Shown one piece after another: positions 15,281 through 23,526 of a stretch of DNA of 64,000 bases. Every line of letters begins with the position of its first letter. The first letter of the stretch is position 1. The stretch lies in the NCBI GenBank assembly GCA_004519485.1, contig CP038111.1, positions 186,001 through 250,000 of the forward strand, read 5' to 3'. The translations under genes and the position numbers were made by a program. The stretch comes from Nannochloropsis oceanica (lineage: Eukaryota > Sar > Eustigmatophyceae > Eustigmatales > Monodopsidaceae). The notes under the pieces were generated by a model, which had not been told where the DNA came from, did no database searches, and was given only the letters and a program-made list of their open reading frames with translations.

Positions 15281-18371
<3,091 letters not shown>

Positions 18372-18820: not shown

Positions 18821-21800
18821 ATGATGCAAGACCAACGGGCTCGACGGTCGCAAGCTGCTGCACTGCTACAGATGGCTTGTCTCGTGCACTGCCTCCCCAC
18901 CGTACACAGTTTCGTCGGCGGAGGAAGCAGGGCTCTGTGGACACCACAATATACGGGCGCGCTACTCAGGTACGACGGACATAGGTGGGCAAAATATCTG
19001 CCTAATTTTGACTGGATTTTCCCGTCGTACCCTTTTTCTCTCACCATCTCAACCCACACATACTACCACCAATTTGCAAAGGCCCGTGTCGGGACCACAG
19101 CGTGCCCGGATAGGAGGGACAATCTGCAGTGCGATTGCGCCACAGACAGGACAAAAGCCCAGCAAGGTCAAAGGAGGTGAGGTTCTTGGTGGCACATAGG
19201 GGTGGGGAGGGGGGGGAATAGCTGGGAACTAATGTGCACTGACACAGCGTCGCGTGCGCATAATCAAACAGAGAGCATGAATCTCTCCTTAAAAGAGCTC
19301 AAAGAACGGACCGAGGCCGAGCGGCAAAAGAACGTCATAGCAGTGCGTGCCCGGCACTTGCTCGTGGAGGTGAGAGAGGGGGCTTTGGGGGGTGGGTAGA
19401 AAAGAAACGAGAGACGATTAGAAGGGGGGCTGAAATTGCTCTCATTTTGAATTAATGTTTACTAAATGTCCCCTTCCTTATCATTTCACGTGCATGCATT
19501 ACAATGCACAACCAGACGGAGCCTTTGTGTGATTCTCTTTACGAGGATATCAAAAAGGGGGCGGAATTTCACATCATGGCACAAGCCATCTCGGCTTGCT
19601 CGGTAAGACTTTGGAAGGGATGAAAAATGATAATCGACTGTATAGAGAATATGGAAATGCGTCGCAGGCCATGTAGGAGGCAATTTAAGGAGAGACAGAA
19701 GGAGCTCCGTCCCGGAGGAAAACTCTTCTATTTAGCTCTTTGGTAAAGTTATGTCAACTTTTTTCTTTCCTCTACCTCTCTTATCACACCGTCAGGTGAC
19801 ACGCGAGGCTGGCGGGGACGTGGGTTGGATTGGTGTAGCGGACGATTTCCTCGAAGACGTGGTCCCGCACCAGGTGCGGGAAGCGGCCCTCAAGCAGAAG
19901 CCGGGGGATGTGATAAAGGTCTCAAGCACGCGGGGTTTCCACCTGGTCAAAATAGAGGATGTCATGTTCGACCTTAGCTACACCTCCAAGCCTCAGGGTC
20001 GAGTGCAGGGCCGGGGTTTGATGCCGACGCCTCTCAAACAGCTCATGGCTAAGGAGGGGGCCGATGCGGACGCCGCGCTGACGTACGCAGTAGAATCAAT
20101 GGGCTGTGCGATGAACACGGCAGACTCGGAGCGTATGGCAGGACAATTGATGGCGCTGGGCTTCAAGGAGGCCTCCACGCCACAGGAGGTCACAAAGGCC
20201 GATGTGGTGGTTGTTAATACTTGTTCCATCCGTGATCACGCCGAGCAAAAAGTCTACAGCTTTCTTGGCCCGTACATCAACCGGAAGAAGCGCGGCGACA
20301 ACCTGGCCATTGTCGTGGCAGGCTGTGTGGCGCAGCAGGAAGGGCAGGCTATCATCACGCGCTTCCCGGAGGTGGACTTGGTGATAGGGCCGCAGTACGC
20401 GAATAGGCTGGGGGATCTCTTGGAGGAAGTGATGGACGGGAATCAGGTGGTTGCGACCGAGGCCACACACATCATGGAAGACGTCACCAAGCCGAGACGC
20501 GACAGTGATTTGCGGGCGTGGGTTAATATAATTTACGGTTGCAACGAACGCTGCACGTATTGCGTCGTTCCCACTACCCGCGGCACAGGTAAGGTTATCC
20601 CCTCTAGTTATTGACTCAGGGTCCACAGCCCTTTCTTGTCAGGGCAGTAACAGTAGTTTGTCTATCGCCCCACTTTTATTCTGACTCCCGCGACCTTTCA
20701 TGGCGATCATGTGCAAATCTTAAGGGCAAGGAAGGTACCTGCAAGGTCTCATGAGGACTCTCAATACAGGAAGACAATGAGAAACGAGGGGCCAGTTGTG
20801 CCACCAACCAGTTTTTGGGAAGGGAGGGGATGGTGGCGTGGTTGGGTGGAATTGTCTTAAGGCTTTTGAGATTTTTTTTTTCAACTTTCAGTATTTACTA
20901 TTTTTTTAGTGTGATTGATAGTGTTGTCTAAATATATGGCCCTCGCAGGTGGCTCGGCAACCACCCCTGTAGCAATCTGTTTTGACCTCAACGCTACCCA
21001 CTTCCACCCACCACCACCCCTCCAAACAGAGCAAAGTAGGCCACGCGAGTCCGTGATCCGCGAGATCGAAGAGCTGGCTCGCACTGGCTATCGTGAAATT
21101 ACTCTGCTTGGTCAGAACATTGACGCTTACGGCCGAGACCTCACCCCGAAGCAGAAATTCTCGGACCTGCTGCTTGCGGTGGGCAAGGTGAAGGGCATTG
21201 AGCGCGTGCGTTTTGTGACGAGCCATCCCAGGTACATGTCCATGGGCGTCATCGACGCTGTAGCCTCCACCCCCAATATGTGCGAGATGTTTCACCTTCC
21301 GGTGCAGGCCGGCGACGATGAAATCCTGAGGCGGATGAGCCGGGGCTACACCGTGGCCAAGTACCTGGAGATCGTCGACCGAATCCGGACCCTGCTCCCA
21401 GACGCCGCGGTCACCTCTGATATCATCGTTGGCTTCCCCGGAGAGACGGAAGAGCAGTTCCAGAACACGCTCCGGCTCATGGAGACTGTCAAGTTTGACC
21501 AGGTCAACACTGCAGCCTACAGCCCCAGGTATGTATTCTTGTGGATGGAGTCATTCTCAGCTGGGCTTTTCGTGTCTTTGAATCATGTTTATTCCGCGAG
21601 AGAAATAAATCTTTATCTTCCTCAATCCAAATGTACAGACCCAATACGCCTGCCGCCATTTATGAGGAGCAGGTTCCCGATGATGTCAAATCAGACCGGC
21701 TGCAGCGGATCAACAGGCTGGCTGCCGACCACGCCTTGGAGCGAAACCAGCGCTACCTGGGCCGGGAGATGGAGGTGTTGGTAGAGGGGCGGTACGTCAA

Positions 21801-21954
21801 GGACCCTCGTCTGGTCAAGGGCCGCAACCGCCAGGGCCGGCCTGTGCTGTTTGAAGGAGACATTGCCGAACTCCGGGGCAAGCTCGTGCCAGTACTCATC
21901 ACGGAGGTCAAATCATTCATGCTGCTCGGGAAAGCGACAGGCGAAGCGACGTGA
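18821..21954 (+). CDS. Parvulin prolyl isomerase fused to MiaB tRNA methylthiotransferase, plastid-targeted
   Basis: Seven phase-consistent exons (18821-18969, 19082-19176, 19248-19369, 19516-19602, 19796-20588, 21030-21528, 21639-21954) encode 686 residues. Residues 1 to about 80: signal peptide-like start ending VHSFVGG, then a basic transit-like stretch. Residues about 114-207: rotamase of the PpiC/parvulin type ([47 protein letters not shown]). Residues about 245 to the end: MiaB-type radical-SAM enzyme that adds the 2-methylthio group to i6A37 of tRNA. UPF0004 cysteines are C255 (MGCAMN), C294 ([12 protein letters not shown]) and C328 ([10 protein letters not shown]); the SAM cluster is C400, C404 and C407 (GCNERCTYC). 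[16 protein letters not shown] and a C-terminal TRAM domain ([15 protein letters not shown]) follow. Exon 5 spans the end of the parvulin domain and the start of MiaB without a stop, so the fusion does not depend on an uncertain splice. I know of no described parvulin-MiaB fusion. Confidence 0.9.
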
Positions 21955-22238: not shown

Positions 22239-23526
22239 ATGGTAAGTGGACAAGGGAACCCGTCGCGATTTCTACCTTCACGCTCTCCTTCCCCTGTGTA
22301 CCTCACCAACACTTAGGCGACGACTTTAGAGGTCCCAGTAGTGTCCGACGAGGTCGTCAAGGCCTGGCTACCCATGTACAAGCCTATAGATAAGCCTCGG
22401 CTTCGTATTTTGTGCTTTCCCAGCGCGGGAAGCGCCGAGAACATCTATACGGGGTTGGCAGTCCGGGAGAAGCAACGGACGCCCAACAAGCTCATGGCTT
22501 GGGCCGTAGACGCCCAAGCCGAGGTGCTAGCCGTCCAGTACCCCGGTCGGGAACAGCGACGAAAAGAGCCTTTTGTTAAGAGCTGTCAGGCAATGGCGGC
22601 AGCCCTCTTTCCTGTCATCCAACCCAAGCTGCGGAAGGAGGACGTGCCCTACGTTATTGTCGCGCACAGCTGTGGGAGTTGGATCGCATACGAGTTGCTG
22701 AAGCTGCTGCGGGCACGGGACATGCCCATGCCCAAGATGTTTTTTGTGTCGTGCATGGCCTCTCCGGACATTGCAGCGAGTGCCAAGGTGAGTAAGTGGG
22801 GGGTTTGGGTTGGAGAGACAGACCGCTTTGTGAGGCCTCTCGGGGATGAGGGCGTGCGTAGGTTGACGATCCACCATACGTGTACACATATCCATGCATA
22901 AGTTCTTATTTCTCCATTTACTCATTATCCCTACAGCCGTGGAAGTCGAACAAGGAGATGAGCGTGGCCCAGCTACAAGCCGAGTGCCGCCTGTGGGATG
23001 TGAATGAGGTGGTCTTTCGCCCAGACGTCTGGCCCACCTTTGAGCCTCTTCTTCGCGCGGATTTTTCGCTCTTTGATCAGTACACATTTGCCTCTGAGGG
23101 TAAGCAGCAGAGAGAGGATGGAGTGTGTTTGCACGATGCCAGCTAGCTCTGTGGGCAGAAGTGATGGAGTCATCCCGGACATTATTTGTTGCAAGCCGTG
23201 CTTAAATTCGTTCCTTACTCGGCAAAATGCAGGTTTTTGCCCCTTCAATTTTCCCATTCACTGTTACTTTGCCGCAAATGATCGCAAGATTTCAAGGGTA
23301 CGCACTTACAAAAACAGCTTTATGTCACCCGATCAAACACTGCTGCTTCTTATTTTTTTTAATTCTAACAACCCAACAGAAAATGGTGGAGGGCTGGCAG
23401 AGGTTCACGACCTCGGACTTTGACGTGGATTTGGTGCAGGGGAATCATCTCTTTGTTTACAATGCAGACGTGCGAGACGATTGGTTTGAGAGCATTACGG
23501 ACTTCCTAACGGGAGAAGGCTTTTAG
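22239..23526 (+). CDS. Type II thioesterase (GrsT-like alpha/beta hydrolase)
   Basis: Stand-alone thioesterase of the kind that releases or edits acyl chains on polyketide, peptide or fatty acid synthase carrier proteins. Five exons: 22239-22241, 22317-22787, 22937-23099, 23233-23297, 23380-23526, giving 282 residues. The first coding exon is only the ATG, with GTAAGT directly after it. Family signatures: RILCFPSAGSAENIYTGLA, VLAVQYPGREQRRKEPFV, the nucleophile elbow AHSCGSW (Ser119, with Ala where most members have Gly), MFFVSCMASPD, then Asp229 in YFAANDRKIS and His257 in GNHLFVY. An inserted MSVAQLQAECRLWDVNEVVF segment and FEPLLRADFSLFDQY form the lid typical of the family. No targeting signal is apparent, so it is probably cytosolic. 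A substrate synthase is not encoded nearby. Confidence 0.88.

What the first reader, a model, noticed from the sequence alone, without database searches (positions are those of the whole stretch)
18821..21954. Parvulin prolyl isomerase and MiaB methylthiotransferase in one plastid-targeted polypeptide
A complete parvulin-type rotamase domain precedes a complete MiaB-type radical-SAM tRNA methylthiotransferase. The UPF0004 cysteines C255, C294 and C328, the CxxxCxxC cluster C400/C404/C407 and the TRAM domain are all present. The junction lies inside one uninterrupted exon (19796-20588). I know of no described fusion of these families. A peptidyl-prolyl isomerase attached to an iron-sulfur enzyme could assist folding or cluster maturation of the enzyme itself, or link translation tuning (ms2i6A37) to protein folding in the plastid.
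Basis: partly seen in the sequence, partly recalled or inferred. Interest (0 to 1): 0.85.

Follow-up and report, generated by a model that had tools for sequence, protein, structure and literature searches.

The report
Prolyl isomerase fused to tRNA enzyme
In many algae whose plastids descend from red algae, one protein joins a protein-folding domain to a tRNA-modifying iron-sulphur enzyme; the join is real, old and conserved, but what the folding domain does there is unknown.

Summary
In detail: seven exons (18821-21954) splice to one 686-residue protein with parvulin, UPF0004, radical SAM and TRAM domains. The fusion is not peculiar to this species. Of 144 rows (window plus 143 proteins), 122 hold both parts complete, 1 a complete parvulin and truncated MiaB, 10 part of the parvulin domain, 11 none; the 11 look mostly truncated. 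Named holders include eustigmatophytes, diatoms, brown algae, Triparma, Chrysoparadoxa, haptophytes and chromerids; cryptophytes by tree. The MiaB half is closest to cyanobacteria, so it probably came with the plastid. Parvulin and MiaB distances correlate (r 0.855), as one inherited fusion would. Catalytic-type residues are nearly invariant (Cys150 122 of 122, His200 121, His118 119), though pocket residues differ from Par10. N-termini look plastid-directed in 64 of 93 testable rows. Ten library searches listed no paper describing the fusion; a likely prior source (Meheust 2016) is not held. Database records already join the domains. The parvulin part's function and source, and the fusion's presence in red algae, remain open.

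The parts
18821..19176 (+). Exons 1-2 (18821-18969, 19082-19176): N-terminus with hydrophobic stretch followed by Phe (PTVHS|FVGG), signal plus transit peptide like
   Evidence: splicing; hydropathy test
19248..19369 (+). Exon 3: start of parvulin domain, His118
19516..19602 (+). Exon 4: middle of parvulin domain, Cys150
19796..20588 (+). Exon 5: end of parvulin (Ser195, His200), linker, UPF0004 domain, radical SAM cysteines 400, 404, 407
19337..19960 (+). Parvulin domain, residues 112-206 (introns included)
19961..20080 (+). Linker, residues 207-246, 84% identical to N. gaditana
20081..21951 (+). MiaB part, residues 247-686 (introns included)
21030..21528 (+). Exon 6: rest of radical SAM domain
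21639..21954 (+). Exon 7: TRAM domain and stop

Best explanation
A single nucleus-encoded, plastid-directed protein. Shown by sequence: its C-terminal part is a MiaB-type methylthiotransferase of cyanobacterial kind with all six cluster cysteines; its N-terminal part is a parvulin domain keeping catalytic-type residues; the two have been inherited together in many algae with red-derived plastids. Inferred: the MiaB part makes ms2i6A37 on plastid tRNAs; the parvulin part is an active prolyl isomerase or chaperone held next to MiaB, which helps the imported, unfolded enzyme (or a partner bound to it, such as a cluster carrier) to fold and take up its two [4Fe-4S] clusters.
For: Domains and model. 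Conservation: 122 of 144 rows with both parts complete; among these Cys150 122/122, Ser or Thr195 122/122, His200 121/122, His118 119/122 (in P0003 the aligned His lies in what looks like intron read-through). On their own, 63 of 65 members of alignment A2 match Pfam Rotamase_3 at E 0.01 or better and 59 of 65 Rotamase (A2 is a set I chose from listed rows). Distance correlation r 0.855, largest of 500 permutations 0.20. Nearest prokaryotic MiaBs are four cyanobacteria at 55-59%, the next is 44% (cyanobacteria also rank first of 18 bacterial proteins). N-termini: 71 of 93 rows hydrophobic (shuffle mean 20.7, max 30), 64 with a following small residue plus Phe (mean 7.9, max 16). A MiaA match lies at one place of the genome; its two other methylthiotransferases are not of cyanobacterial type. 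In E. coli Grx4 cooperates with NfuA in MiaB maturation (PMC3721309, passages, citing Boutigny 2013). Two of the five residues fixed in 95% or more of fusions and absent in 18 bacterial MiaBs are prolines, P310 and P455, possible cis targets.
Against: No activity, localisation or RNA data. The hydrophobic pocket residues of Par10 (M57, F61, recalled) map by eye to I/V/L173 and A/V178 (A in 93, V in 20 of 122), with a spacing like that of PpiD, a parvulin recalled to be inactive; PpiD, however, shows neither histidine in the alignment. The proline excess rests on five sites, and the deepest row, P0139, lacks P310. AlphaFold pTM is 0.59 and the linker scores 56-69, so no domain contact can be claimed. 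22 of the 93 testable N-termini, both chromerids among them, show no hydrophobic stretch. MiaB of the malaria apicoplast is dispensable in blood stages (PMC8844926, passages), so help to MiaB need not be vital.
Confidence: 0.45

Rival explanations
1. The parvulin domain is a binding module, not a catalyst: it docks the enzyme to a partner (plastid ribosome, cluster carrier or tRNA), with the conserved residues kept for ligand binding.
For: Changed pocket residues (mapping by eye); parvulin domains also occur in chaperones such as SurA and PrsA, which the family profile matches best among solved structures.
Against: Both catalytic-type histidines and the cysteine are kept in nearly all rows.
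Confidence: 0.25
2. The parvulin domain is a general plastid foldase that merely shares a transit peptide with MiaB; the fusion gave both one import signal, and there is no functional link.
For: A single N-terminal targeting region serves both parts. The genome also holds another parvulin match, on C21, near a reading frame that looks like rhodanese by eye.
Against: No convincing split case in the listed rows: in the search whose query lacked a parvulin part (P0120) 99 of the 120 listed rows have both parts complete, 10 part of the parvulin domain, 11 none, the last mostly truncated. The lists are capped, so split genes further down are not excluded.
Confidence: 0.2
3. Two separate transcripts or genes, joined only by the reader's splicing.
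For: No RNA data for this genome.
Against: The end of one domain and the start of the other lie in one exon; both are in one protein in relatives down to about 50% identity, among them eight rows with an mmetsp source.
Confidence: 0.03

Closest known systems
MiaB, tRNA-i6A37 methylthiotransferase (solved: 7mjz, 7mjv; organism Bacteroides uniformis recalled)
   Same: UPF0004, radical SAM, TRAM; six cysteines; Foldseek E 8.3e-41, 37% identity over 443 columns, TM 0.65 by target, rmsd 12.5
   Different: N-terminal parvulin and targeting region are extra
PpiC/parvulin isomerases (PrsA, SurA, Par10, Pin1)
   Same: Fold: PrsA fragment 6xd8 TM 0.86 by target, rmsd 2.4; profile matches to all four; His, Cys/Asp and His positions
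   Different: Pocket region replaced by a family motif (LPxxxR, KPGD); attached to an iron-sulphur enzyme
Proteins of chimeric origin in plastids (Meheust 2016, not held, recalled; Dorrell 2017, PMC5462543, passages)
   Same: A cyanobacterial-type part joined to another part and sent to the plastid
   Different: The terms MiaB, peptidyl, parvulin, rotamase, methylthio, prolyl isomerase and radical SAM do not occur in the Dorrell main text; its tables were not readable

Membership tests
MiaB | NCBIfam TIGR01574 above its cut-off, RimO and MtaB models below | tested here: met
   446.4 against 355.3; RimO 296 against 356.95; MtaB 320.9 against 357.05
MiaB | Two sets of three cluster cysteines | tested here: met
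   C255 121/122, C294, C328, C400, C407 122/122, C404 121/122
MiaB | Methylthiolation of i6A37 | not testable with these tools
   no assay
Parvulin/PpiC | Pfam Rotamase models | tested here: met
   window 45.6 and 35.2 bits, above cut-off; Rotamase_3 in 63 of 65 A2 members at E 0.01 or better
Parvulin/PpiC | Two active-site histidines and Cys or Asp | tested here: met
Parvulin/PpiC | Hydrophobic proline pocket (Met57, Phe61 of Par10, recalled) | tested here: inconclusive
   by eye: I/V/L173 and A/V178
Parvulin/PpiC | Prolyl isomerase activity | not testable with these tools
   no assay
Plastid protein of a complex plastid | Signal peptide followed by Phe at the transit start | tested here: met
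   home-made hydropathy rule, not a trained predictor: met by the window, P0002 and 64 of 93 rows; not by the chromerid models or P0139
Chimeric (symbiogenetic) plastid gene | One part of cyanobacterial origin, the other not | tested here: inconclusive
   MiaB cyanobacterial; parvulin source unresolved

The most novel reading that the evidence does not exclude
The fusion formed once, before the spread of red plastids, and travelled with them into cryptophytes, haptophytes, ochrophytes and chromerids; its parvulin domain isomerises prolines of its own MiaB partner (candidates P455 and P310) to let the clusters be built or switched, a folding catalyst built into an iron-sulphur enzyme.
Probability: 0.12. 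Interest if true: 0.75.

Novelty: new variant of a known kind. Interest (0 to 1): 0.5.

Why it matters
A fusion kept through a long history of red-derived complex plastids suggests that the two functions are useful together. It offers a way to study how imported iron-sulphur enzymes mature in plastids, and a rare shared character for the disputed history of red plastids, provided that red algae and dinoflagellates are checked.

Tried and rejected
Rejected: chance adjacency or a splicing artefact; a Nannochloropsis-only novelty; RimO or MtaB identity.

Inconclusive: source of the parvulin domain. The profile A3 gave its best matches in the phylum of the Nitrospinaceae record (46 of 60 genomes at 1e-10 or better, best 1.2e-16). 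In the phylum of the cyanobacterial record 114 of 244 matched at 1e-8 or better, best 1.7e-14, mostly genomes of about 2 Mb. In 12 single genomes 11 matched at 0.001, the one miss being a cyanobacterium. Cut-offs and numbers of genomes differ between these calls, and a 100-residue domain is too short to choose.

Deep tree order is unsettled: relations among the algal groups include open forks (12 of 36 inner branches open, 19 of 62). P0139 is the deepest branch (the other 34 algal rows grouped 100/99); its N-terminus lacks a hydrophobic stretch, which would suit a red alga, but its organism was not given and this is a guess.

Bias: the query holds both parts and only 120 of 7995 matches are listed, so fused proteins rank first; (query without parvulin, 120 of 7999 listed) is the fairer count. 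Some rows with all parvulin columns filled have no rotamase domain in the precomputed column (for example P0058, P0102, P0103, P0105); my own scan found Rotamase_3 in 63 of 65 A2 members.

Literature: ten searches listed no paper whose title or shown abstract describes this fusion. Seen: passages of PMC5462543, PMC3721309, PMC8844926 and PMC8877259; for others the listing only. Meheust 2016 is not held; what I say of it is recalled or from the Dorrell passages.

Full report
Observation. Pfam finds, all above cut-off, a PpiC-type rotamase domain (104-206), UPF0004 (248-349), Radical_SAM (394-565) and TRAM (619-681). NCBIfam calls the second part MiaB (TIGR01574, 446.4 bits against 355.3), with RimO and MtaB models under their cut-offs. 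Linker and domain junction lie in exon 19796-20588. The window lies in a 29.26 Mb assembly of 32 contigs; closeness to N. gaditana (P0002, 85% identity over 99% of residues 85-686) indicates a Nannochloropsis-type alga.

Relatives. A search with residues 85-250 gave three proteins, all fusions by their precomputed domains, one being the N. gaditana protein named adenosine tRNA methylthiotransferase. The search with residues 85-686 (7998 candidates scored, 120 listed) gave fusions from diatoms (Nitzschia, Cylindrotheca, Seminavis, Cyclotella, Thalassiosira and others), brown algae, Chrysoparadoxa, Triparma, haptophytes (Prymnesium, Chrysochromulina), Vitrella and Chromera. P0120 is from the cryptophyte Baffinella (by the taxid in its name); it starts at the linker, and its relatives P0006, P0008 (both parts complete) and P0017 (76 of 95 parvulin columns) form one clade with it (100/99). 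A search from P0120 residues 1-475 (7999 scored, 120 listed) showed no named red alga, green alga or plant; since only the best 120 are shown, this does not show absence.

Counts. Together 143 proteins and the window make 144 rows: 122 with both parts complete, P0001 with a complete parvulin and a truncated MiaB, 10 with part of the parvulin domain, 11 with none. Of the 11, seven lie on contigs of 1.4-1.6 kb, too short for the whole (P0118, P0123, P0124, P0125, P0128, P0133, P0141), P0136 is labelled partial, P0120 looks 5'-truncated, P0121 (12 kb contig) begins at what looks like an exon border inside the MiaB motif, and P0122 is a 368-residue fragment. In one search, whose query has no parvulin part, 99 of 120 listed rows have both parts complete, 10 part, 11 none. 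I found no convincing split gene in these capped lists. Scanned one by one, 63 of 65 members of A2 match Rotamase_3 and 59 Rotamase at E 0.01 or better; all 65 match UPF0004, Radical_SAM and TRAM.

One inheritance. Pairwise distances of the two parts over the 122 rows correlate at r = 0.855; the largest of 500 permutations was 0.20. No match among the 80 covers the parvulin region of the query in full; the earliest starts are residue 184 (L032) and 210 (L037). In the window's genome UPF0004 matches at four places: this gene, a short copy, a gene over the cut-off of TIGR01578 (L005) and a MiaB-like gene with 345.8 bits for TIGR01574, just under cut-off (L006; CDK5RAP1-like, label recalled). Against 18 bacterial MiaBs the four cyanobacterial ones rank first for the window's protein (465-533 bits) and last for L006 (210-218 bits); L005 is about equally far from all (27-34% identity). 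The fusion is thus the only cyanobacterial-type MiaB found. MiaA (PF01715) matches at one place.

Is the parvulin part active? Residues matching the known catalytic set are kept: His118 119 of 122, Cys150 122, Ser/Thr195 122, His200 121; exceptions are P0012, P0068, P0075 and P0038. The His of P0003 is probably from intron read-through. Solved relatives by profile include SurA, PrsA, Par14, Par10 and Pin1 (the short names Par14 and Par10 are recalled). Against: the pocket positions differ from Par10 (mapping by eye, Par10 numbers recalled). AlphaFold on P0002 with 65 sequences gave pLDDT 78.3, pTM 0.59; ten-residue means are 89-98 over residues 111-210, 56-69 over the linker 211-240, and mostly above 80 over the MiaB part, with the weakest stretch at 371-420 (49-78). 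Foldseek matched MiaB 7mjz (E 8.3e-41, rmsd 12.5) and PrsA 6xd8 (TM 0.86 by target, rmsd 2.4).

Targeting. Of 93 of the 122 rows with a Met start and 45 or more residues before the domain, 71 have a hydrophobic N-terminus (shuffles mean 20.7, max 30) and 64 have a small residue and Phe after it (mean 7.9, max 16). Window and N. gaditana both do. The rule is home-made. The chromerid models and P0139 do not fit it.

Mechanism. MiaB enzymes need two [4Fe-4S] clusters (recalled); in E. coli Grx4 cooperates with NfuA for its maturation (PMC3721309 passages). i6A37 or ms2i6A37 is known on chloroplast tRNAs for Phe, Trp, Tyr and Cys (PMC8877259 passages). An imported enzyme must fold and be loaded inside the plastid; a tethered isomerase could help. 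P455 is in 122 of 122 fusions and P310 in 118 of 122, both absent in 4 cyanobacterial and 14 other bacterial MiaBs; five residues in all meet the 95% rule, and P0139 has P455 but not P310. This is a lead, not a test: it may only mark the clade, and unfused algal MiaBs were not available. [quoted passage not shown]

Novelty. Ten searches of the held library listed no description (named in Tried and rejected). Records in public databases already join the domains, some named Peptidylprolyl isomerase. I file it as a new variant of a known kind: a MiaB with a conserved extra domain.

Noticed in passing
19951-20337; L002 1501-1887 (G000:C11, from 853470 downwards): A 387-base piece of exon 5 (99.7% identical, one mismatch) lies on another contig, C11, in reverse, without the rest of the gene: a young fragment copy.
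   Followed up: partly
L007/L008, G000:C21 around 694550-695146: Another parvulin match of this genome, with a reading frame downstream that looks like rhodanese by eye; resembles the parvulin-rhodanese proteins of plants (recalled).
   Followed up: partly
P0139: Deepest branch of the fusion family, N-terminus without hydrophobic stretch; organism not given, possibly a red alga.
   Followed up: partly
L006, G000:C5; L005, G000:C13: The two other methylthiotransferases of the genome: a second MiaB-like gene and a gene of the TIGR01578 kind.
   Followed up: yes
22317-23526 and 16419-18371: Downstream reading frames look like a thioesterase-type hydrolase, the upstream frame like a DEAH-type helicase (both by eye only).
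   Followed up: no
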